38,877 bases of DNA, taken from positions 1 through 38,877 of the IMG/VR virus record IMGVR_UViG_3300010399_000057. One strand, 5' to 3'. How positions within the stretch are numbered: the first letter of the stretch is position 1; the number at the start of each line of letters is the position of its first letter. Source of the stretch: a virus. The notes under the pieces were generated by a model. The model was not told the DNA's origin, searched no databases, and saw nothing but the letters and a program-made list of their open reading frames with translations. Of the stretch, positions 19,596-33,383 are shown one piece after another. Made by a program: the position numbers and the translations under genes.

Positions 19596-20156
19596 TCACG
19601 TGGAATGCGCGCCGTTATGCGACCCGCAGCGGATACGGACAGTCAGGTCCAGGAGATCGGAATTGGCGAGAGTTACGCCGATGCCGTTGACGAGATTTCC
19701 CATGATGCCAACGGCCGAACTTGAGTTGACGCCATCCGAAATACCCGCAGAGTCAAGGGCAAGAGACGTGACGCTGTCGGCCGCACCTCCCAGCGTGCAC
19801 TGGAGGAAGATCCACTCCGACGATTGCGCCTGAGTGGATCCGACAGCGCTCACCTTGCGCTTGACTTCTCCCAGTCCGCCTTGGGTCGAGTCAGTCGAGT
19901 GCGTCGCCGTCTGCGTACCGATGGCGATGTAGAAGAACGGCGAAGTGTCGTGAGCCATCGCGCGATGGGCAATGCGATTCATGCCCACGCGCGTGACGAC
20001 GTTCTTCAATGTCTTGCGCTCGATGCGCCCGTCTTCGCGAATGACCTTGACGTCCCACTCCCCTTTCAGGGAGATGGATTCGAGCATCTCGCCGACCTTG
20101 CTCGCGCGGACGAAGCCGACCGATTGCAAAAGGTCGTCAAAGGTACGGATCGTCAT
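19596..20156 (-). CDS. Virion-associated hypothetical protein
   Basis: A 186-residue protein with GEWDVKVIREDGRIE, KNVVTRVGMNRIAHRAM, then YIAIGTQTATHSTDST and LGEVKRKVSAVG. This arrangement (N-V-V-T-x-x-G, then an IAIGT loop and an LGEV-K-R strand) recurs in small phage fibre or virion proteins of unknown role. ATG 20156 lies within the end of the glycosyltransferase gene, 13 nt after AGGAG, so translation is coupled. Confidence 0.6.
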   Translation of the reverse strand: MTIRTFDDLLQSVGFVRASKVGEMLESISLKGEWDVKVIREDGRIERKTLKNVVTRVGMNRIAHRAMAHDTSPFFYIAIGTQTATHSTDSTQGGLGEVKRKVSAVGSTQAQSSEWIFLQCTLGGAADSVTSLALDSAGISDGVNSSSAVGIMGNLVNGIGVTLANSDLLDLTVRIRCGSHNGAHST

Positions 20157-23100
20157 AGTGCTTGATTGGCTCCTTGAGGAAGCGATTGGCGAGCTGGACG
20201 TAGAACTCGCGGGAATGAAAGGCCCCTTTCAGGGAGTAGTTAGTGGCGAGCGCCGGCGCTATCGGATTGGCGACCTTCACCGTGATTTCGGACTCGAAGC
20301 CACCGCCAGACGTCACGACGCAATGCGTGTAGTACGGCATCGCATCGCTGATCATTCGAAGGTGCTCTGTGGTGGTTACCAGGTCTTCCATCAGCGCGAT
20401 TCCTTCGCGAGCTCGCTTCACATGCTCGGGCGCTATGCCGCCGCCCAACTGCTCCTGTTCGAACATGAGGCCCTGCGCCAAATCCCTCAGCCAGAGGAAC
20501 TTGTTCAACTCTCGCTGCGGATACTGCTTCCGGTCTCGAATCAGCAGCGGGAAGTTGCGCTGGTAACGCGCCCGCCGTGTGGCCTCATCGACGTAGCCGC
20601 AATGAAGGAATTTGACCTCTGGCCGCACGAGGGAGTGAGGAACCGCTTTCCCTATCTCGGACTCGGGATGCTCATGACACAGACCGTAGAACCGGATGCC
20701 GCGACGATTGCGGAAGAAACGGCACGGATAGTCCGTCGTCAGAACCTGGTCTGGATTGATAGCATAGTGAACCTGGGCAAACCCGAAGCCCCCATGCATC
20801 GAATGGCGCGCAAGCTTGTGCAGGTGCCACGTGTCATGCATCTCCTCGTCGGAGTCGCACCACAGGATCCAATCGCCAGAGGCTTTGTCGATGGACTCAT
20901 TTCGAGCTGCATCGAATCCGTCTCGAGTAGCCGACTTCTCCGCAATTGCGTAGGTAAACGGACGATTCGGGAAGTCTCCGGCCAGTTGCCGACACACATC
21001 GAGCGTTCGATCGGAGGTCTTCGGGTCGATGCAGATGATGATCTCGTCGACGACATCCACAAATGACTCGACGCATTTGCGCAGTGTCTTCTCGGCATCC
21101 TTGACGATCAGGCAGGCCGAGATCGTCTCGCGTGGGGCATAGAACTTCAGCTTGCGCTCGTAGTTGGGTTTCGAGAACGGACTTTCTGGCCAGACCGACC
21201 ATACCCATGATCCCATTGCCTCGCCTGAGGCATCGTGGCCAGCGGGCGCATAGGCGATCTCGCACCGATTCTCTCCACAAATCTCCTCTATGTCAGCGCG
21301 CTCGAAGTGGAACATGTGCTCACGGCCCGTGCGGAATGCGACCGTTCCCGAGTGTTCCCAACGCCCGTGAGGAGTCGTGATGATGAGGCAGCCCCCGGAC
21401 TTTAGAGCTGCACGGAACGATTCCAGCAGTGCCCACGGATCAATGACGTGCTCGAGCACTTCGCCCGCGACGATGATGTCGAACTTCCCCAAAGTCCCCA
21501 AAACACCATCGAACATCTGAATGAACGATGCATTGGATGCGCTATCGCGCTCTGCCCACTTTCTAGCTGCCGCAATCGCGCGCGCGCTGATATCGACGCC
21601 CACGAACTCGCCGTGCGAGAACAGTTTGGCGAGCGGCATCGTGTAATGGCCATGGGCACACCCGTAATCCAAAACTCGGGGCGAAACATTCTTCGTCGCC
21701 ACGCAGTGGTCTATGACGTACTGACGCGTCCCGCGGAACCGGGTCGTATTCGTTACGTCCTCGCCAATGACCTGCTCCTCGTGGCCGTCGTAGTACTCGC
21801 CCTGATGCTTTGCGTAGTGATTGCGGTAGGCGTCGTCGGATTCGGCGAAGGCATACATCCTCTCCAGTTCTCCGAGAGAGGCGCTTTCGATGTCCGACGT
21901 CCACTTGGACTGCACATGCTCATCGACGTACCACTTCGCAAATGCGATATCGCTCCGCTCGATGGCTGTGCGGAGGATTCGACCGGAAGAGCCAGGTCCG
22001 CCTACCTTGCGTGCAAATGACTCGTCGATTACATCGAGGAGTCGGTCAGCCGCTACAGACCATGTGCGAGACTCGGCTGCCTTTCGCTGGCAGGCCTGCA
22101 TTAGACCGAGTGCGGCCGGGCGCTGGGAAGCGTCGTACAGATGGTCCGTAAGCCAGTCTACGAACTCATCCTCATCGGCCTTGCCATCCTTGAGCGCAAA
22201 CAACTCCACGCCAGCACCGCGGCACGTTTCAGGCAGCGCCGCATGGTCACTCGACAGCATCGGCAAACCCGCATGCATCGCCTCCATCGCCGTGATGCAC
22301 GACACCTCCGCGAACTCCGTGGGATAGATGAGCACGTCCGACTTGCGCTGAAGCTCTGCAAGCTGCGGCTTTGTGAGCGCGCCGATGACCGAGACGTTTG
22401 GTAGATCGGCAGATTGGGCTAGCAACTGCTCGTAATAGTCCCGCATCTGCGCAGTCGTATTGTCGTACCCGCAGATAACGAGGTGCACCGGCAGATCGCG
22501 GACTCGGTCCATGATCCCGCCTGGGCGCACGAGATGCTCGAGCCCGCGTTCTGGACGACTCTGGTAGAGCAGCAGAAATTTATTGGCGGGCAGCGCCACC
22601 TGCACGACGGCGCCAGTCGTCGGATCGTTCAGGACGTCGGTCTTGTCGCCACGGATGGTGATACAAGGCTTGGCTTCCGATGCCACGTACAGCGCCGGAT
22701 CCACTCCGTTGGGCACCACTCGCATGACGTCGTCTGGGATGTTCCAGACTTTCTTGACTTGTTCTGCATGCCACTGCGACACCGTCGTAACGGCGTCGAT
22801 CTGCCACATGTTGTTGAGCATGTGCGCGGAGTTTCGATACAGGGCGAGGTCGTGTAACTGCCAGATGCAGACCTTGGCATTCCACCGCTTGTGGAAGCCG
22901 GTTGGATGGCGCTGGACGATGAGCACATCCATCGGCGTATGTGAGGCGTAGTGCTCGAAACGCTCTCCGAGTGGGGTGTGCTCGTTGATCTTGCCTGCCG
23001 AGCACCAGGTCACCCCGTCCTTGCGGGATTCGCCTTGGATGTTCGTGAAGCAGGAGACGCGATGGCCGCGCTTGGCGAGCTCTATCGCGAGGTAGTAGGC

Positions 23101-23184
23101 GGCGGTTTCAGATCCGCCAAGGGACTTCGTGGCGATCGTATCGCCATCGAAGGGCATGCCCAATGCATGAATGACGATGTCTAT
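20137..23184 (-). CDS. GT4 - methyltransferase - GT2 fusion protein
   Basis: About 1015 residues with three enzyme domains. Residues 1-395 are a GT-B fold family 4-type glycosyltransferase (MPFDGDT, SLGGSETAAYYLA, VVPNGVDP, and an E-x7-E motif near residues 293-301 in AEVSCITAMEAM). Residues 440-680 are a class I SAM methyltransferase (VLDYGCAHG near 504-512; GEVLEHV). Residues 687 onward are a GT2 transferase (SACLIVKDAEKTL, WCDSDEEM with the metal-binding DSD near 777-779). It probably builds and methylates a short glycan; acceptor unknown. No ATG, GTG or TTG precedes the first beta strand (IVIHALG): the start is probably ATA 23184, overlapping the upstream stop as ATAG, 12 nt after GGAGG. 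TTG 23163 or ATG 23157 would remove that strand. Confidence 0.85.
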   Translation of the reverse strand: MDIVIHALGMPFDGDTIATKSLGGSETAAYYLAIELAKRGHRVSCFTNIQGESRKDGVTWCSAGKINEHTPLGERFEHYASHTPMDVLIVQRHPTGFHKRWNAKVCIWQLHDLALYRNSAHMLNNMWQIDAVTTVSQWHAEQVKKVWNIPDDVMRVVPNGVDPALYVASEAKPCITIRGDKTDVLNDPTTGAVVQVALPANKFLLLYQSRPERGLEHLVRPGGIMDRVRDLPVHLVICGYDNTTAQMRDYYEQLLAQSADLPNVSVIGALTKPQLAELQRKSDVLIYPTEFAEVSCITAMEAMHAGLPMLSSDHAALPETCRGAGVELFALKDGKADEDEFVDWLTDHLYDASQRPAALGLMQACQRKAAESRTWSVAADRLLDVIDESFARKVGGPGSSGRILRTAIERSDIAFAKWYVDEHVQSKWTSDIESASLGELERMYAFAESDDAYRNHYAKHQGEYYDGHEEQVIGEDVTNTTRFRGTRQYVIDHCVATKNVSPRVLDYGCAHGHYTMPLAKLFSHGEFVGVDISARAIAAARKWAERDSASNASFIQMFDGVLGTLGKFDIIVAGEVLEHVIDPWALLESFRAALKSGGCLIITTPHGRWEHSGTVAFRTGREHMFHFERADIEEICGENRCEIAYAPAGHDASGEAMGSWVWSVWPESPFSKPNYERKLKFYAPRETISACLIVKDAEKTLRKCVESFVDVVDEIIICIDPKTSDRTLDVCRQLAGDFPNRPFTYAIAEKSATRDGFDAARNESIDKASGDWILWCDSDEEMHDTWHLHKLARHSMHGGFGFAQVHYAINPDQVLTTDYPCRFFRNRRGIRFYGLCHEHPESEIGKAVPHSLVRPEVKFLHCGYVDEATRRARYQRNFPLLIRDRKQYPQRELNKFLWLRDLAQGLMFEQEQLGGGIAPEHVKRAREGIALMEDLVTTTEHLRMISDAMPYYTHCVVTSGGGFESEITVKVANPIAPALATNYSLKGAFHSREFYVQLANRFLKEPIKHYDDPYL

Positions 23185-23933
23185 GGCACGCTTGTGCCTC
23201 CTGCTACATGTCGATAGGCCACTTGTGCCTCCAGTTTGATGGGAATTTCCCGCAGCTTGGCGGGCGGTAGAGGAACACCCACGTCGAGGTGACATGAGTG
23301 ACAGAGTTTGTAGGGTGCGGTCTGGAGCGACGGAATGTCATCGTCCAGCGTGCCGAGGATGTCGTCGGCCGTCGCATCGAAACAGCAGCGCGCAATGCGC
23401 CCATCCGCGAGCACAAACACGCGGCCGTTCTTCACCCACGGGCACGGCAGGCCCTTCTGATGGGTGGATACGTGCCATTTCACCTGGCCCGCCCAGTCCA
23501 CGGACTCAATCGCAGCGTCGCACGAGATGCCGGCAATGATGCCCGCTTCCTTCAGCGCTTCGACCGCAGGGCCCGCCCGCTCGGGACGATGCAAGCTGAC
23601 CCACACCCGGATGCGCGTGGGCGCGATGGCCAGTGCCATCTCACGCGTCATCAAGATGCCGTTCGTGGCAAGGATCAGCGGAACGTTCGGCCCGATCGCC
23701 TCGCGCGCGAGAAAGACATTCCGCACAAATTCGGGGTGCATCGTGCTTTCGCCGATGCCAGCGAGGTTCAACTCGGGGCCTGGCATGGCGCGCGCCCACA
23801 GCAACGCCTTGGCGTACGTGACGTCGTCCATGTGGATCTTTGGACGCGCCATCTTCGGATGCACACAGTACTTGCAAGCGAGGTTGCACTTGCTGGTCAT
23901 CTCGATCTGGTGGATGGCGCGGACGCGGAACAT
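23181..23933 (-). CDS. Radical SAM/SPASM-like enzyme (second copy)
   Basis: A 250-residue protein with the radical SAM motif CNLACKYC (Cys 16, 20, 23) binding a 4Fe-4S cluster and SAM, then LAGIGESTMHP, LATNG and VSLHRPERAG. The C-terminal region carries further cysteines (LPCPW, ARCCFDA, LCHSCH), a short SPASM-like auxiliary cluster site. It is a paralogue of the gene at 24813-24118, sharing SxDWAGQVKWH. ATG 23933 overlaps the previous stop as TGATG. Its last 16 residues are encoded by a 31-bp near-repeat that includes the start module of the next gene, so the C-terminus may be secondarily changed. Substrate unknown. Confidence 0.85.
   Translation of the reverse strand: MFRVRAIHQIEMTSKCNLACKYCVHPKMARPKIHMDDVTYAKALLWARAMPGPELNLAGIGESTMHPEFVRNVFLAREAIGPNVPLILATNGILMTREMALAIAPTRIRVWVSLHRPERAGPAVEALKEAGIIAGISCDAAIESVDWAGQVKWHVSTHQKGLPCPWVKNGRVFVLADGRIARCCFDATADDILGTLDDDIPSLQTAPYKLCHSCHLDVGVPLPPAKLREIPIKLEAQVAYRHVAGGTSVP
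23182..23232 (-). repeat. Tandem near-copies of the GGAGGCACAAG start module
   Basis: GGAGGCACAAG occurs at 23232-23222 and again at 23201-23191, 31 bp apart, each followed by a related GCC-AT-GACAT segment. The downstream copy ends in ATAG and starts the glycosyltransferase frame. A third, nearly identical module lies at 27327-27307 before the protease gene. Confidence 0.6.
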
Positions 23934-24121
23934 CAGGGCGACTCGTGCTTTCTGAAAATAGCCATCCGCAATTCATCCTTGAAGCCATCCGCTTCCGCAT
24001 CCAGCAGCAACTTGCACTTCGTCGGATCTCGGATGTCGAGCGCGTAAGAACAGCCCGTTTCTGCGTCATAGACCCAGAAACCGACGTCCTTCGTGTACGA
24101 ATAACCGACTTGGCCGCTCAT
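23933..24121 (-). CDS. Small protein between the radical SAM genes
   Basis: A 62-residue protein (GYSYTKDVGFWVYDAETGCS, then RDPTKCKLLLDAEADGF) with two cysteines and several Tyr and Asp residues. ATG 24121 has GAGGTGG upstream and overlaps the previous stop (ATGA); its stop overlaps the next start (TGATG), so the three genes are translationally coupled. No family recognised. A short ORF coupled between two radical SAM/SPASM genes could be a peptide substrate or a small partner, but there is no leader-core pattern or recognition domain that would prove a RiPP. Confidence 0.6.
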   Translation of the reverse strand: MSGQVGYSYTKDVGFWVYDAETGCSYALDIRDPTKCKLLLDAEADGFKDELRMAIFRKHESP

Positions 24122-24813
24122 GCCGCCACCTCTTCCTGCAAATGCGCAGGAACCTTCAAGTGGCAATTCGAGCACAGCCCAATCGGCCGCGTCATCAGCG
24201 AGCCAGGCTCATCCCAGACGGTCGCGAGCTTGTGTTTGCTGTGTGCATCCATGCAGCACGCGTTGATGCTTCCATCCTGGCGCACAACCGCCCAGCCGGC
24301 GGCAAGGTAGGTGCAGTCGTGTGACGGTGCTGAGGCATGCCACTTCACCTGCCCTGCCCAATCGATGGACGAATCCACAAATGCCGTATTGAGCCCACCG
24401 ATGGCGCCAGCCTTCTTCAGCATCTCCCACGCGGGCCCCGCCTTCTCCGGTCGGTGCGTGCTCACGAACGTGATGACGCGCAACTGCGCGAGCGCTTCGG
24501 CAATCTCAGGCGTCATGTCGACGCCATTGGTAGCCAGAACGATGTTCTGTCGACCGATGGTTTCGCGGACCCTGAAAATCGCTTCGATGAAACGCGGGTG
24601 AAGGATGGCCTCGCCGATTCCCGTAAGTGATACCTCGCCCTGCGTTCCCTGCCTCACGTAGTAGGCGACATGCTCAAGCGTGCGCTCGAATGTCTCCCAG
24701 GACATGTCTGCCTTGGGCCGCTCGAGCTTTGGATGCGGGCAATAGCGGCAAGCCAGCGAGCAGCGGCTGCTCAACTCGATCTCGTGGATCTCACGTACGG
24801 GAACAGATTTCAC
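24118..24813 (-). CDS. Radical SAM/SPASM-like enzyme (first copy)
   Basis: A 231-residue protein with CSLACRYC (Cys 18, 22, 25), the radical SAM cluster motif, followed by LTGIGEAILHP, LATNGVDMTPE and STHRPEKAGPAW. C-terminal cysteines (HDC, ACCMDA, LCSNCH) form a compact SPASM-like site. GTG 24813 is chosen: AAGG lies a few bases upstream and the protein then begins just before the first strand (REIHEIEL). The frame is open far upstream, antisense-free but overlapping the capsid gene, which I reject. It is the first gene after the capsid terminator. It likely modifies a peptide or sugar; substrate unknown. Confidence 0.85.
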   Translation of the reverse strand: MKSVPVREIHEIELSSRCSLACRYCPHPKLERPKADMSWETFERTLEHVAYYVRQGTQGEVSLTGIGEAILHPRFIEAIFRVRETIGRQNIVLATNGVDMTPEIAEALAQLRVITFVSTHRPEKAGPAWEMLKKAGAIGGLNTAFVDSSIDWAGQVKWHASAPSHDCTYLAAGWAVVRQDGSINACCMDAHSKHKLATVWDEPGSLMTRPIGLCSNCHLKVPAHLQEEVAA

Positions 24814-24825
24814 ATGCCGCCTTTC

Positions 24826-24851
24826 AAAAAGGGCGGGCCCGAAGGCCCGCC
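24826..24851 (-). terminator. Intrinsic terminator after the major capsid gene
   Basis: On the leftward strand GGCGGGCC and GGCCCGCC pair perfectly around a TTCG tetraloop, followed by C and five Ts (24830-24826). This is a textbook rho-independent terminator, 15 bp after the capsid stop. It would make capsid mRNA abundant and the radical SAM island weakly expressed by read-through or antitermination. Confidence 0.85.
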
Positions 24852-24866
24852 AACCGAGGTTACGTG

Positions 24867-25844
24867 TCAGGTCAATCCGTTCGCCTGAGCCGAGCCGACG
24901 CCGAGAATCAGCGCGCCGTACTCCGAACCAGTGATCTTCTCGTCCTGGTAGTACTGCGCTTCGATACCGTCGACCTTCGTCCGGGTGTTGTACGGGTGCC
25001 GAATGACCGCGAACGGAGTACCGAGCTCCGGAGCTGTCCAGCGGAACGAGTACATGAACGACGGGGTCTCGCGAGAAGGCGCCAGCGGCGAGAAGTACAC
25101 CAGCACGGAGTCCTTGAGCGCGTTGCTCGACAGAGATGCCGTCTGGTTCTCGTTCGCCGTGTTGTAGAACCCGCCCGCGACGATCAGTCGATCGACCTCG
25201 AACGCATTCTGCGTCGCCTGGCGAGTCACCGCACCACCACCGTTGTTCAAACCGAGAACAAAGTTCCTCGCGTTCGAATTGCGGCGGAAGTAGTTCCACG
25301 CCTGCCAGCCGAAGCAGATGCTGTTGGGCTTCTGCGCCGTCTGGGACTGTACCTGCTCCATCGCTTTCCAGATCACAGAGATCGGATCGCCGTTGGTCGG
25401 GCCCACCCACGAAGAACCCGTGAGGAAGCCCGTGGAGACGTTCGAGGCCGAGCCCACGAGGTTCGTGATGCGGCGGTCCCAGTCCAGATACAGTTTCGTC
25501 TCGAGGTAACGGGTGGCGCCTACATCCAGTTCGAACTGCAACGCCGCGTCCATGTTCGCCCGATCCTCGATCGGCACGTCATAGGCGAGCGCGTAGTTCT
25601 TGCAGGCGTAAGCGGCGGTCGAGACCGAGCGCGTGACACGCTTGGCTTCGGTGCCGCGGGAACGCGCCGTATCTTCGATTGCGAACGTCTCACCGCGGTT
25701 GAACACCGGGTAGTAGTTCGTTTCCTTACCCACCGGGACGATCGGCGCGATCATGTCCGCGATGAACCCTTCCGGGCGGTAGTTGATTGCGATCTCGCTG
25801 AGGAACGTGTCCACATGCAAGTCGCGGCCAGTTGAAAGACCCAT
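24867..25844 (-). CDS. Major capsid protein
   Basis: A 325-residue protein with the order and composition of a phage major capsid protein: DLHVDTFLSEIAINYRPEGF at the start, YPVFNRGETF, ALAYDVPIEDRANMD, and a C-terminal MYSFRWTAPELGTPFAVIRH. It follows the protease-scaffold and decoration genes and precedes a strong terminator. ATG 25844 lies 11 nt after GGAGG. Confidence 0.85.
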   Translation of the reverse strand: MGLSTGRDLHVDTFLSEIAINYRPEGFIADMIAPIVPVGKETNYYPVFNRGETFAIEDTARSRGTEAKRVTRSVSTAAYACKNYALAYDVPIEDRANMDAALQFELDVGATRYLETKLYLDWDRRITNLVGSASNVSTGFLTGSSWVGPTNGDPISVIWKAMEQVQSQTAQKPNSICFGWQAWNYFRRNSNARNFVLGLNNGGGAVTRQATQNAFEVDRLIVAGGFYNTANENQTASLSSNALKDSVLVYFSPLAPSRETPSFMYSFRWTAPELGTPFAVIRHPYNTRTKVDGIEAQYYQDEKITGSEYGALILGVGSAQANGLT

Positions 25845-25861: not shown

Positions 25862-26236
25862 TTACACGCCGGGCCAGGCCGGGACGGTCATGAAGTCGAC
25901 GAATGCCTCGACGAGATCGCCGCTGGCGCACGTTGCAGTTGCGCGACCCACCATGGGATCGCCAGACGCTGCAACAGTCAGCCAGCCGGACGTGGTGATC
26001 TTGAGCGGGTAGCCCAAGGTGCTCACCGCGCCACTGACGGCTACCTTCATCACGCCTTCGTAGGCGACGCTGATGCGCTCACCGCTTCGGGCACTGGTGA
26101 TGAGGATGCCGGCCGCGCGCGAGGTGCTCGCGACCACGAGACCAGCGAAAGACACCGCGTGGAAGCGCGCTGTCGCGACGGAGAGATCTTCCGTGGCAAT
26201 GATGGACCAATCGTTATGTCGACCGTGAGTTGACAT
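25862..26236 (-). CDS. Capsid decoration / cement protein
   Basis: A 124-residue beta-rich small protein (SVATARFHAVSFAGLVVAST, GVMKVAVSGAVSTLGYPLKI, DPMVGRATATCASGDLVEAF), typical of phage head decoration proteins (DUF2190-like), located between the scaffold and major capsid genes. ATG 26236 lies 13 nt after GGAGG. It would bind and stabilise the expanded capsid lattice. Confidence 0.75.
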   Translation of the reverse strand: MSTHGRHNDWSIIATEDLSVATARFHAVSFAGLVVASTSRAAGILITSARSGERISVAYEGVMKVAVSGAVSTLGYPLKITTSGWLTVAASGDPMVGRATATCASGDLVEAFVDFMTVPAWPGV

Positions 26237-26803: not shown

Positions 26804-27310
26804 GTCGGCCTTGTGGCCTCCGTTGTGAGTGTGTGTTTCCCGCGAGAACGCCACGCGCTCACGACACTGGAGTGCAGTGCTTCGAGCCATCGTCAGCGAC
26901 AGGGATTTGAGGATGCCAACCGCGGGCTGGTCGGCTCCCAGGAGAGCTACTGCGTCGAGCACCCACGGGATTTCCCGTGTATCGGCTTTGACGTCTTTCA
27001 GGAGCTCGACGGAAACGAAACGGAGCATGCCGTCGCGAATCCAGTTCGCGACCTTCTCTGGCACGCTGAAGTCCGCCAAGAGCTTCTTCCCTTGGCGGTA
27101 AATCTTGGTGACCCAGCCCAGCGCAAATTGCGTGGTGGGGTCATCGCGAACGTCAGGGCCTTCATGCCCGAGCTTCAAGGGCACGTGTCCGGCGAGGTTC
27201 AGCGCGTCGAAGGACTTCACTATGCTGTCGACGTCGGTCTCGGTGAACTCGATAGAGTTCCACTCACCGATGGCGAAGATTTCCTGACCCTTGAGGTCGA
27301 CCGTCGCTAT
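26255..27310 (-). CDS. Head maturation protease with C-terminal scaffold
   Basis: About 351 residues. The N-terminal 150 resemble Mu gpI-type head proteases: LKGQEIFAIGEWN, HVPLKLGHEG (candidate catalytic His), FALGWVTKIYRQGKKLLADF and RFVSVELLKD (candidate Ser), then VALLGADQPAV. The C-terminal half is the scaffold. Coding starts before the first GTG (27220): 30 more codons match the family N-terminus. The frame begins at ATA 27310, overlapping the upstream stop as ATAG, 12 nt after GGAGG, with a GGCAC-CAGC-GTGCC hairpin between. It cuts the scaffold during capsid maturation. Confidence 0.8.
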   Translation of the reverse strand: MATVDLKGQEIFAIGEWNSIEFTETDVDSIVKSFDALNLAGHVPLKLGHEGPDVRDDPTTQFALGWVTKIYRQGKKLLADFSVPEKVANWIRDGMLRFVSVELLKDVKADTREIPWVLDAVALLGADQPAVGILKSLSLTMARSTALQCRERVAFSRETHTHNGGHKADMADDKDVSALMARIDKLEADKKAAELKAAEGESFQRKLTELQAQTHADKVTTHRAKLMEAFEAGIKAKTILPAVREQFKRVYKTETDDVLNVTVSDAEVFMRANPNPDAPRTPTTQGAIDPNDPAEKALFSARAAAAVAAVNPANRDKPRDQILVEAMQSEFRRNPDLAKAWQDAPGSIGGK

Positions 27311-27327
27311 GGCACGCTGGTGCCTCC
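27307..27327 (-). promoter_or_regulatory. Unusual translation start module (GGAGG-hairpin-ATAG)
   Basis: GGAGG, 12 nt and ATAG, with GGCAC/GTGCC pairing around a CAGC loop. Folding would shorten the effective distance from the ribosome site to ATA 27310. The same module with one base changed starts the glycosyltransferase gene at 23201-23181. GTG-CCA-TAG, 7 nt after GGAGG, is also present in the upstream frame. Confidence 0.5.
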
Positions 27328-27558
27328 TGGCTTCTTGTCGACCTTCTTGGGCGGAGGCGGGTACAGAGTCACGCCAACCTCGCGGACCCAGTCCGTCCAG
27401 AATACTTTGCGATCAGCGGGAAGCTGGTCGACGTGGCCGCGGATCTTCTGAATGATGTCCTGATAGGTCTCAGGCGCCTGATTGCGCGCGACGCACGAAG
27501 CAAGGCTTTCGCATTCCTGCGCAGCGAGCAGATCCGTGGCTTGTTCGGCAGCGTTCAT
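27307..27558 (-). CDS. Small hypothetical protein
   Basis: An 83-residue protein with a helical N-terminal half (EQATDLLAAQECESLASCVA) and PPPPKKVDKKPGG near the end. No family recognised. ATG 27558 overlaps the previous stop (ATGA). Its last codons lie in the start module of the protease gene, ending GTSVP. Confidence 0.5.
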   Translation of the reverse strand: MNAAEQATDLLAAQECESLASCVARNQAPETYQDIIQKIRGHVDQLPADRKVFWTDWVREVGVTLYPPPPKKVDKKPGGTSVP

Positions 27559-27761
27559 GCGGCACCGTCCTTCGTCTTGATGGCGTCGTCCATTACGCGG
27601 GTGATGACGCGGGCATACAAATGCGAGTAGGACTCGGCGATATCTGGATATTGCGCGCGGATGCGGCTGAGTAGATCAGCATAGTCCGGCCCGATGCCCT
27701 CTCCATGGCAAACGTCTGCCATGTGCAGAATCGTTTCCGCATCAGTAGGAGTGAGTCTCAT
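27555..27761 (-). CDS. Small helical hypothetical protein
   Basis: A 68-residue helical protein (DAETILHMADVCHGEG, PDYADLLSRIRAQYPDIAES). ATG 27761 has GGAGG 9 nt upstream inside the portal gene end and overlaps its stop (ATGA). It lies between the portal-MuF and protease genes; function unknown. Confidence 0.55.
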   Translation of the reverse strand: MRLTPTDAETILHMADVCHGEGIGPDYADLLSRIRAQYPDIAESYSHLYARVITRVMDDAIKTKDGAA

Positions 27762-30262
27762 TGCAGCGTCCCTCCAAACCCAACGGCAGGTTGCACCGAT
27801 GGCTCGGGCGATTCCACGCCGTCCCAGCCATCCACCTCTGTGACGGGAATGAGCACACTACGACAGTTGAAGTGATTCGGCGGCCGGTACTTGTCCCAGT
27901 TCGGCGAGTCTTCCGGCCATGTGCTGCCGTTCAGCGCCTCGCATATCTCTGTCGTGCGGTCGTCCAGAATGGCCGAGTACTCCAAGGCCTGAACGAAGCC
28001 ACCCAGAGCGGGATCCGTGAACTCGGCATAACGCGCTTCGTTCATGGCTTCGAACAGGTTGGTCCGGCTCAACGTGTCAAGGTAGGCGGCCGTCTGGCGC
28101 TCGCTGGCGCCCCACAGATCCTTCAGCGTCTGCGTCACGGCTGGATTGTCTTCCACGTCCAGCACCGACTCACGAGATGTGAATCCGCGCGAGACGAGGC
28201 GGTCCCAGATCACCTCGCGGGTGTCCTTCGCCGTCCGGCCGAACTTCACGCTGTTCTGCAGTTCCTGCTGAATCAAACTGCGTATCCCATCTGACACGTT
28301 GCCGGCCATTCGAAAGCCGTTCGCTTCGAAATAGTCGGCGGCCTTATCGCGCAAATCTGTCATGGCCACAAATCTTTGGCCACGGGCGCGCTCGAGTTCG
28401 TTTCGAGCCAGAGAGCCGCCCAGCGTCCAGGCGGATGCGAGTGATTTGCGGTACAGGTCTTTCAGCTTGCCCTTCTGCAGGGAAGTGAATTCGAACTCGG
28501 CAATATCCGTGGTGTCTTCGTCGATGAGCTTGTTCAGCTCCTCGTCCGAGCCCAGGAGCTTCTTGACGGCTTTGGCATTGAAGGCGGCCACCTGGCCGGT
28601 CAGTTCTGCGGCAATCTTGTTCTGCCGGTCCTCGATGACCGTGAAGGCCACGCGCTGCACGGCGCGACTGAATTGCGCAGCGTTCGCGCTTCGTAGCTTG
28701 CCATGAGGGACAACGCGCCGGTCCGCCAGGGACGTAACGGAGCCGCGGGCATCCGTCGAACGGCGCTCCAACCGGAGGCCGGTCGCGTCTCCCCTTTCCT
28801 TTCCCAGTGAGGCAATCGCAGCCTTGATTTCCACCATGCTGGCCTTGAGCGCCGTCATGTCCTGCGTCTGACGCTCCTTCGCTGTACGGTCGGCCTCGGC
28901 TTGAGCGCGTGCGTCCTGATTTTCGCGCATCTGCTGGTCGAACGTCTGACCGTCGGTGGCCCGCTGCTCTTGGCCTGCCACCACTGGATCCATCAGCGGT
29001 TCGGAGTCCTCGTCCCGCTTCGGCATATCGAGCAGTTTGCGAATGTGGGCCTCGTCGGCCTCGGTCGGGATGACGGCCTTTCCGGTAATAAGCTTCGTCC
29101 AGGTCTCCACCATCCATTTCACCTGGTCCATGGACGCCGGCTTGAAGCAGAACTCGGGATAGTCCCCGTCCCCGAAGTTCTGGTCGCATAGGTCGCGCAC
29201 CAACTGCTCGTTGATGCATGCCTCCAAGCGGCTCGCATCGGCATTCAGGGTCCAGAAGAATGCTTGGAGCTGGGTATCGGACTGCGCGAAGGACCCAGTT
29301 TGTCCGGTGTGGGAGATGCCTAGCAGGTTTGGGACGAGCAATGCCTTGGCAATGGCCAAATCGAAGAACACGAGCGCCTTCTCGTAGGCGTCCGTGTTCG
29401 GCGGCGTATGGACAGTGAGCTCGACGCCCGGCGGCATCATGACGCCCATGGAGCCGTGGACGTTCTTGAGCAGTTCCTGGATCGATGCGTATTCGGCCGT
29501 GCCGTACTTTGCGGTGGAATCCTCGCTACGGCGAGCCTCGACAAGTCCACCCGCCATCCGCTCGAGGTAGTTCGTCCAGAGCGTGATGAGCCGATCCTTC
29601 ACGTACCAGCTACGGTAAGCCTCGCGCAGGTCCGAGCGGCCGTAGAACGGGTCGAACTCGGGGCTGTGCACGTAGTGGATCATGCGACCCATGTCGACTT
29701 GCGTCTCACGGAATGGCACGCGTTGAATGACCTTCGTCAGCGTACCGAAGTCGTCCGTGTAGAACTCAAAGCTCGAGGCGTCCCGGCCGCGCAGCTCCGA
29801 GATGCCTACATACGTCTGCTTGTCGATTGTGACGTCGGAGTAGATTTTCTCCGTGAGCGACAAGCCAAAATCCCGTCCCATCGAGATGAGATTCAGTCCG
29901 TCGACGAAGCTCCCGCGCATCTTGCACAGGATATCCGTCATGACCTGGCAGCGTCGGCCGCGCTCTTCCTCGCTGAGCGAACTCTCGTTCTCGTACTTGA
30001 ATGACCAGCCGCGCGCCGTGATGGCATCGCGCTTGAAGTTCATGACGGCCTTGACCTGCTCATCCAAACGCATCTGGGCGTAGATGCGAAGGCCCTTACG
30101 ACCCACGAGGTCGTCCGGGTTATAGCGAGGCCCGAGCGAGATCGTCGCACGTTCGTAGGTCGCAACGTCGTTCAGAGGGCGGGACTGGGAGGCGTCCTCC
30201 TGTTCCAGCGGCTCGACGCGTCCGAACAGGGCTTTCACGGCACTGGAAAATCGGTTCGCCAA
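27758..30262 (-). CDS. Portal protein fused to MuF-type head morphogenesis domain
   Basis: An 834-residue protein. The first 450 residues match DUF935/Mu gp29-type portals (SLGPRYNPDDLVGRKGLRIY, KRDAITARGWSFKYEN, GLVEARRSEDSTAKYG, LLVPNLLGISHTGQTGSFA). After a charged linker, the last 150 residues have the MuF minor head signature (LSRTNLFEAMNEARY, SAILDDRTTEICEALNG, RPPNHFNCRSVLIPV). The portal forms the DNA channel; MuF domains act in head assembly or ejection. In Mu these are separate genes (29, 30). TTG 30262 directly follows the terminase stop in the same frame. Confidence 0.85.
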   Translation of the reverse strand: MANRFSSAVKALFGRVEPLEQEDASQSRPLNDVATYERATISLGPRYNPDDLVGRKGLRIYAQMRLDEQVKAVMNFKRDAITARGWSFKYENESSLSEEERGRRCQVMTDILCKMRGSFVDGLNLISMGRDFGLSLTEKIYSDVTIDKQTYVGISELRGRDASSFEFYTDDFGTLTKVIQRVPFRETQVDMGRMIHYVHSPEFDPFYGRSDLREAYRSWYVKDRLITLWTNYLERMAGGLVEARRSEDSTAKYGTAEYASIQELLKNVHGSMGVMMPPGVELTVHTPPNTDAYEKALVFFDLAIAKALLVPNLLGISHTGQTGSFAQSDTQLQAFFWTLNADASRLEACINEQLVRDLCDQNFGDGDYPEFCFKPASMDQVKWMVETWTKLITGKAVIPTEADEAHIRKLLDMPKRDEDSEPLMDPVVAGQEQRATDGQTFDQQMRENQDARAQAEADRTAKERQTQDMTALKASMVEIKAAIASLGKERGDATGLRLERRSTDARGSVTSLADRRVVPHGKLRSANAAQFSRAVQRVAFTVIEDRQNKIAAELTGQVAAFNAKAVKKLLGSDEELNKLIDEDTTDIAEFEFTSLQKGKLKDLYRKSLASAWTLGGSLARNELERARGQRFVAMTDLRDKAADYFEANGFRMAGNVSDGIRSLIQQELQNSVKFGRTAKDTREVIWDRLVSRGFTSRESVLDVEDNPAVTQTLKDLWGASERQTAAYLDTLSRTNLFEAMNEARYAEFTDPALGGFVQALEYSAILDDRTTEICEALNGSTWPEDSPNWDKYRPPNHFNCRSVLIPVTEVDGWDGVESPEPSVQPAVGFGGTLQ

Positions 30263-33185: not shown

Positions 33186-33383
33186 GCCGTTTGGAGAGCA
33201 GACCTAGCCCCTAGGGCTTCAGTCCTTCACATGCCGCCCGGAGCCGCATGACCCGCCAGCCGTTCGACGCAAGGGCGCTAGCTTCGCCACCCTTCTGCCC
33301 CCTGTTTCAGCGTCTGGCCACAGTAGGGGTATCTCATCGCATCGCCGTGGTTGCATTTCTGTCCCCCGATGCGATGGTTCGCA

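What the first reader, a model, noticed from the sequence alone, without database searches (positions are those of the whole stretch)
20137..24813. Radical SAM / glycosyltransferase island directly behind the capsid gene
Two paralogous radical SAM/SPASM-like enzymes, a 62-residue protein coupled between them and a GT4-methyltransferase-GT2 fusion form one overlapping gene string between the major capsid gene and the connector and tail genes. The motifs are seen directly. Radical SAM/SPASM enzymes usually modify peptides or build unusual sugars; here they sit with sugar-transfer and methylation domains inside a virion operon. I infer a pathway that decorates a virion protein or makes a modified surface glycan. 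I am not aware of a described phage system of exactly this composition, but I could not search.
Basis: partly seen in the sequence, partly recalled or inferred. Interest (0 to 1): 0.82.

Follow-up and report, generated by a model that had tools for sequence, protein, structure and literature searches.

The report
Phage capsid sugar-coating enzyme cluster
An uncultured group of bacterial viruses carries, next to the gene for its shell protein, a conserved three-in-one sugar-building enzyme and up to two radical-chemistry enzymes that probably attach and tailor an unusual sugar coat on the virus particle, a combination for which I found no described counterpart.

Summary
Behind the capsid gene (minus strand 24813-20137) lie two radical SAM paralogues (45% identical), a 62-aa ORF and a GT4-methyltransferase-GT2 fusion. 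The set is a conserved virion module: a capsid-anchored search of IMG/VR found the fusion behind the capsid in 29 of 30 contigs with at least 1.5 kb downstream. One or two rSAM genes accompany it in most; a few records lack them. Catalytic motifs are conserved throughout and dN/dS is 0.07-0.27. The rSAMs are absent from 50,697 phage records; only single-domain GT hits of about 30% identity or less occur there. The GT2 domain is closest to protein glycosyltransferases (GmaR, SunS). rSAM1 is a twitch enzyme closest to BtrN, an aminocyclitol dehydrogenase (predicted-model Z 19.4). Best reading: the fusion builds a methylated glycan on a virion protein and the rSAMs tailor the sugar. Acceptor, glycan and rSAM reaction are unproven. 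The 62-aa ORF is not conserved. Unexpected second finding: the fusion and the head protease both start at ATA (ATC/GTA in some relatives) behind a conserved GGAGGC-N9-CC element, with no canonical start in several contigs, implying near-cognate initiation or recoding.

The parts
24118..24813 (-). rSAM1: BtrN-like twitch radical SAM enzyme, 231 aa, GTG start behind AAAGGCGG
   Evidence: PF04055 E 5.4e-12; A1 invariants C18/C22/C25, W152-A-G-Q, C167, C186/C187, C214/C217; AF2 pLDDT 91, BtrN Z 19.4
23933..24121 (-). 62-aa ORF coupled between rSAM1 and rSAM2; lineage-specific, not a conserved part
   Evidence: no Pfam/PHROG/NCBIfam hit; no relative in other loci
23181..23933 (-). rSAM2: paralogous BtrN-like radical SAM enzyme, 250 aa; tail GGTSVP* overlaps the start of the fusion
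   Evidence: PF04055 E 1.1e-10; found in 26 viral contigs; A3 invariants; BtrN E 8e-5
20137..23184 (-). GT4-methyltransferase-GT2 fusion, 1015 aa, starts at ATA 23184
   Evidence: EX7E, DYGCAHGHY, DXD; 29 of 30 capsid contigs; GT2 nearest GmaR, SunS
23181..23203 (-). stop-start element CAGGAGGCACAAGCGTGCC|ATA|G at the start of the fusion
27307..27329 (-). second copy of the element CAGGAGGCACCAGCGTGCC|ATA|G at the start of the head protease gene
24832..24851 (-). terminator-like hairpin between capsid gene and island (8 GC pairs, 4-nt loop, T run)
   Evidence: similar hairpins upstream of the fusion in L006, L049, L055, L059, L064 (read by eye)
24867..25844 (-). major capsid protein (phrog_1005), candidate acceptor
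   Evidence: E 1e-59
25862..26236 (-). small head protein (phrog_673), candidate acceptor
19596..20156 (-). virion protein (weak phrog_4176) overlapping the end of the fusion; directly behind the capsid gene in distant relatives; candidate acceptor

Best explanation
A virion-glycosylation module. Inferred mechanism: late in infection the GT2 domain of the fusion transfers a first sugar onto a Ser, Thr or Cys of an abundant virion protein (major capsid, small head protein or the downstream virion protein). The GT4 domain extends it and the central class I methyltransferase O-methylates or caps the glycan. The BtrN-like twitch radical SAM enzymes (one or two, depending on the phage) abstract a hydrogen from a sugar carbon of the donor or of the glycan and oxidise or epimerise it, giving an unusual sugar. 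Shown: gene content, catalytic motifs, constraint, co-occurrence with the capsid type, and nearest structural relatives. Inferred: substrates, order of steps, attachment to the virion, biological role (altered adsorption, particle stability, or shielding).
For: GT4-MT-GT2 lies behind the capsid in 29/30 capsid-anchored contigs; the one exception, L004, ends inside rSAM2. EX7E, SAM-binding and DXD motifs are conserved across 13 fusions at 30-76% identity. dN/dS is 0.07-0.27. The GT2 domain is closest in the PDB to GmaR (5e-23) and SunS (2e-20), protein glycosyltransferases, by profile and by single sequence. The rSAM1 profile hits BtrN over residues 8-202 (E 1.7e-10); its AF2 model (pLDDT 91) matches BtrN at Z 19.4, 213 residues, 3.0 A, above all peptide-acting enzymes. 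The four aux-cluster Cys positions are invariant in rSAM1, and BtrN's aux cluster is also four-Cys ligated (PMC9012708). Precedents: chlorovirus A064R, a GT-GT-MT trifunctional enzyme that finishes the major capsid protein glycan (PMC9614988); glycans covalently on phage capsid proteins in Che8 and Rita (cited in PMC11256854). No thymidylate synthase in 11 of 12 records.
Against: No glycan or acceptor has been shown; all evidence is sequence and predicted structure. rSAMs are missing from some records that carry the fusion (L074's 41.5 kb record; L065, L070), so they are accessory. No nucleotide-sugar gene is seen (only dTDP-sugar epimerase was tested), so donors would have to come from the host. 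Peptide-acting SPASM enzymes (anSME, ChlB) also match the rSAM1 model at Z about 16, so fold alone does not decide sugar versus peptide.
Confidence: 0.58

Rival explanations
1. The radical SAM enzymes modify a virion polypeptide directly (side-chain oxidation, epimerisation or crosslink, as anSME or RiPP maturases do), and the fusion independently glycosylates it.
For: rSAM1 model matches anSMEcpe and ChlB at Z about 16; rSAM genes move with head genes (portal, protease, capsid) in several orders.
Against: Best match is BtrN with the highest Z and lowest E in three searches with rSAM1; no N-terminal extension such as an RRE (the protein starts at the rSAM core); the only neighbouring small ORF is not conserved.
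Confidence: 0.2
2. The island remodels the host surface glycan (O-antigen or capsule) for superinfection exclusion or receptor change.
For: Phage-borne GTs often do this (general knowledge); rSAM and methyltransferase genes occur in bacterial polysaccharide loci (general knowledge).
Against: No obvious transmembrane segment in any of the three proteins (maximum KD19 1.39); position among the head genes in every relative; GT2 nearest to cytoplasmic protein GTs.
Confidence: 0.1
3. The enzymes build a DNA hypermodification (glycosylated or rSAM-tailored base).
For: Some phages use radical SAM enzymes and GTs in DNA hypermodification (general knowledge); very distant capsid relatives include Pseudomonas phage KPP23 and RDJL phages.
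Against: No thymidylate-synthase homologue in the window or 10 of 11 other records; no base-modification gene found in the PHROG scans of the window proteins tested; GT2 is closest to protein GTs.
Confidence: 0.05

Closest known systems
BtrN (butirosin 2-deoxy-scyllo-inosamine dehydrogenase), twitch radical SAM
   Same: CxxxCxxC core, short (about 230-250 aa) chain, four-Cys auxiliary cluster, best fold and profile match
   Different: About 20% identity; stands alone in a small-molecule pathway, not in a virus; the phage pair carries a conserved (D/N)WAGQxxW motif; substrate unknown
Chlorovirus PBCV-1 A064R (GT-GT-methyltransferase acting on the major capsid protein glycan)
   Same: One viral polypeptide with two glycosyltransferases and one methyltransferase; capsid-linked in A064R, proposed here
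   Different: Eukaryotic virus, N-glycan, domain order GT-GT-MT and other GT families; no radical SAM partner described there
GmaR / SunS protein glycosyltransferases (GT2)
   Same: Nearest solved relatives of the GT2 domain, over the whole catalytic domain
   Different: Single GT enzymes for flagellin or bacteriocin, cellular or prophage moron genes; not fused to GT4 and MT
Mycobacteriophage virion glycosylation (Che8, Rita)
   Same: Phage capsid proteins carry glycans and the phages encode GTs (cited in PMC11256854)
   Different: Actinophage with separate GT genes; a GT4-MT-GT2 fusion or radical SAM genes are not mentioned there; the primary paper was not readable here

Membership tests
Twitch radical SAM enzymes (BtrN-like) | CxxxCxxC cluster motif in a radical SAM core | tested here: met
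   C18/C22/C25 invariant in A1, C16/C20/C23 in A3
Twitch radical SAM enzymes (BtrN-like) | C-terminal truncated SPASM domain with one auxiliary cluster, four Cys ligands | tested here: met
   C167, C186/C187, C214, C217 invariant in rSAM1; model aligns with BtrN end to end, Z 19.4
Twitch radical SAM enzymes (BtrN-like) | Oxidation of a sugar or cyclitol hydroxyl | not testable with these tools
   needs an in vitro assay
Full SPASM radical SAM (PF13186) | SPASM domain above the family cut-off | tested here: not met
   14.7 bits against a cut-off of 21.5 for rSAM2; none for rSAM1
RiPP maturation system | Conserved precursor peptide gene next to the rSAM gene | tested here: not met
   62-aa ORF has no relative in the loci; rSAM1 and rSAM2 abut directly in L006
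Virion protein glycosylation system | GT encoded with, and inherited with, virion genes | tested here: met
   29/30 capsid-anchored contigs
Virion protein glycosylation system | Covalent glycan on a virion protein | not testable with these tools
   needs MS of virions
Protein glycosyltransferase GT2 (GmaR/SunS-like) | Closest relatives are protein GTs; DXD motif present | tested here: met
   D777/D779 invariant
SunS family (TIGR04195) | Score above NCBIfam cut-off | tested here: not met
   47.5 bits against a cut-off of 350
Thymidine hypermodification pathway | Thymidylate-synthase-like base hydroxymethylase | tested here: not met
   PF00303 absent from the window and 10 of 11 other records (records are fragments)

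The most novel reading that the evidence does not exclude
A virus-restricted branch of BtrN-like radical SAM enzymes works with a trifunctional GT4-MT-GT2 enzyme to make a non-standard sugar on phage capsids. In one clade the fusion and the head protease are both translated from near-cognate start codons (AUA/AUC/GUA) through a conserved GGAGGC-N9-CC stop-start element, or by an equivalent recoding step.
Probability: 0.35. Interest if true: 0.8.

Novelty: new variant of a known kind. Interest (0 to 1): 0.63.

Why it matters
It would make radical SAM chemistry part of how a phage builds its particle, give a compact source of new glycosylation enzymes, and show that an uncultured phage lineage treats capsid glycosylation as a core trait. 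The fusion is as constant as the capsid gene beside it, so the question 'are these virions glycosylated?' can be tested by co-expression and mass spectrometry. The ATA-start element is a second testable question: how essential late genes are expressed without a canonical start codon.

Tried and rejected
The 62-aa ORF as a conserved precursor peptide: rejected, no relatives. SPASM membership: below cut-off; the twitch fold fits better. The hairpin GGCAC-N4-GTGCC inside the start element as the functional feature: rejected, the pairing is lost in L001, L033 and the L009 group while GGAGGC and CC-ATA stay. A slippery -1 site at the element: no X XXY YYZ heptamer, poor re-pairing of the CCA tRNA, and a sense codon instead of the stop in the L009/L046/L047 protease junctions, so disfavoured but not excluded. 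tRNA genes or a phage initiator tRNA: none in the window. dTDP-sugar epimerase (PF00908) as evidence of phage-made sugar donors: absent in 11 records. Fold of the 186-aa downstream virion protein: AF2 pLDDT 57, too poor to search. L077, the only element hit outside the lineage, carries none of the window's proteins and is taken as a chance match. The Che8 glycosylation paper is not held.
Full report
OBSERVATION. The window is a 38,877-bp IMG/VR virus record. On the minus strand a Mu-type head operon runs: a large gene in the terminase position (terminase by position and by the look of its L037 relative; PHROGs gives no function), a portal fused to a Mu-F-like protein (PF06074, PF04233), head protease (phrog_976), small head protein, major capsid protein (phrog_1005, E 1e-59), a strong terminator-like hairpin (24851-24832), then rSAM1, a 62-aa ORF, rSAM2, the GT4-methyltransferase-GT2 fusion and a 186-aa virion protein, followed by connector and tail genes. 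The genes are joined by overlapping stop/start codons.

CONSERVATION. A search of IMG/VR with rSAM2 gave 27 loci, 26 of them clear relatives, and with rSAM1 nine. Mapping the window's proteins on them shows the same capsid, portal and protease genes around the set wherever the contig reaches that far, but in different orders: rSAM-rSAM-GT behind the capsid (window, L001, L005, L033), GT-then-rSAM behind the capsid (L006, L008, L013, L015), or rSAMs ahead of the protease and GT behind the capsid (L016, L019, L021, L023). To avoid ascertainment by the enzymes themselves I searched with the capsid protein and scanned the loci with profiles: of 30 contigs with at least 1.5 kb behind the capsid, 29 carry the fusion; the thirtieth (L004) ends inside rSAM2. 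The fusion is thus a core neighbour of this capsid type. One or two rSAM genes occur in most records, but L074's 41.5-kb record and the shorter L065 and L070 records have none, so the rSAMs are accessory. The 62-aa ORF has no relatives. Neither rSAM has a match in 50,697 phage records, and the fusion has only single-domain GT hits at about 30% identity or less. The capsid matches listed there are 25-27% identical, and the two neighbourhoods inspected (Arthrobacter phage Ottawa, Pseudomonas phage KPP23) show no such set in their annotation. In bacterial and archaeal genomes the only strong rSAM2 relative, a Zixibacteria MAG scaffold, is the same kind of phage (portal-Mu-F and protease alongside).

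CONSTRAINT. dN/dS between the window and L001/L005/L033 is 0.07-0.27 for the three enzymes, like the capsid (0.04-0.15). The GT4 EX7E motif (E293, E301), the methyltransferase motif around DYGCAHGHY and the GT2 DXD (D777, D779) are conserved across 13 fusions down to 30% identity. In L022 an in-frame intein (PF14890 with HNH_3) sits inside the GT4 EX7E motif, the kind of conserved active-site position inteins usually occupy (general knowledge).

WHAT THE ENZYMES RESEMBLE. The GT2 domain's best solved relatives are GmaR and SunS, both protein glycosyltransferases, and 7msk (annotated as a GT2-like protein), by profile (5e-23, 2e-20, 1e-16) and by the window sequence alone. The rSAM1 profile hits BtrN along residues 8-202 (1.7e-10). 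The AF2 model (pLDDT 91) has BtrN as first hit in Foldseek (2.5e-11) and by VIA-align (Z 19.4, 213 residues, 3.0 A). The next are ChlB and anSME at Z about 16, so the fold alone does not exclude a peptide substrate. The rSAM2 profile also reaches BtrN, more weakly (8e-5, not the first hit). Invariant C167, C186/C187, C214 and C217 of rSAM1 fit a four-Cys auxiliary cluster as described for BtrN (PMC9012708). BtrN oxidises a hydroxyl of an aminocyclitol.

MECHANISM (inferred). GT2 places the first sugar on a Ser/Thr/Cys of a virion protein, GT4 extends, MT caps, and the rSAMs oxidise or epimerise a sugar carbon. The closest viral precedent for such a trifunctional enzyme is chlorovirus A064R, whose two GT and one methyltransferase domains finish the major capsid protein glycan (PMC9614988). 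Glycans on phage capsid proteins are reported for Che8 and Rita (cited in PMC11256854). The terminator-like hairpin behind the capsid gene would keep the enzymes below the capsid level (inference). Rivals (direct peptide modification by the rSAMs, host-surface remodelling, DNA modification) are weighed in their sections; the absence of a thymidylate synthase in 11 of 12 records and of obvious transmembrane segments counts against the last two.

SECOND FINDING: STARTS WITHOUT A CANONICAL START CODON. The fusion and the protease genes both begin at ATA directly behind a near-identical 23-nt element. At 22 junctions in 13 contigs the element is GGAGGC-N9-(C/T)C followed by ATA, or ATC (L009, L046, L047 protease) or GTA (L026 protease). 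In L001, L004, L009, L028, L045 and L047 the protease frame has a stop 6 nt upstream and no ATG/GTG/TTG; for the fusion in L009 and L045-L047 only 24 nt are open upstream, again without a start. Orthologues outside this clade have ATG or GTG at exactly that codon (fusion: L006, L008, L011, L013, L055, L059, L064, L066). The upstream ORF (rSAM2, the 83-aa ORF, 90-, 149- and 177-aa ORFs, or a 28-aa leader) always arrives in the same frame, usually with a tail of the type GGxSxP. In most cases the stop overlaps as ATAG, the TAG version of the common 'NTGA' -4 overlap of translationally coupled genes (PMC12548453). The pattern GGAGGCNNNAGCNNNCCATAGNNAY occurs in 12 stretches of the whole IMG/VR collection, 11 of them in this lineage; the other is unrelated. 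I favour coupled near-cognate initiation over -1 recoding because no slippery heptamer exists, because ATA/ATC/GTA differ from ATG/GTG only in the third base, and because the codon is the ancestral start. This is not settled.

VERDICT. It is a new variant of virion glycosylation, restricted to phages known only from environmental sequence as far as these collections show. My literature searches of the held library found no paper describing it, which is weak evidence because most subscription papers are not held.

Noticed in passing
window 23203-23181 and 27329-27307 (minus strand); L001, L003-L005, L009, L026, L028, L033, L045-L047, L054: GT fusion and head protease start at ATA (ATC/GTA in a few) behind GGAGGC-N9-CC, with no canonical start codon available in several contigs; implies near-cognate initiation with stop-start overlap, or -1 recoding.
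   Followed up: yes
L009 10673-10718 (also L045-L047): A short leader ORF with its own SD and GTG (VNYRTDNRGGFSKP*) stands apart from rSAM2 and ends at the ATA start of the fusion; in the window the same stretch is the in-frame tail of rSAM2.
   Followed up: partly
L022 18006-20663: In-frame intein with HNH domain inserted inside the EX7E catalytic motif of the GT4 domain.
   Followed up: partly
L003 850-2919: The portal protein carries a C-terminal ADP-ribosyltransferase domain (PF03496, E 8e-17) in the linker that joins portal to the Mu-F domain in relatives.
   Followed up: partly
window 33251-33376 (minus): Strong Rfam match to Betaproteobacteria-1 RNA (RF02932, 88.8 bits), a hint to the host group.
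   Followed up: no
window 27758-30262 (minus): Portal (PF06074) and Mu-F-like head protein (PF04233) are fused in one 834-aa ORF.
   Followed up: no
window 24851-24832 (minus); upstream of the fusion in L006, L049, L055, L059, L064: Terminator-like hairpin directly behind the capsid gene in several relatives, as if to set capsid above enzyme expression.
   Followed up: partly
L037 (Zixibacteria MAG scaffold): A fragment of the same phage lineage (portal-Mu-F, one rSAM, protease) lies in a bacterial MAG; the only strong rSAM2 hit in genome contigs.
   Followed up: partly
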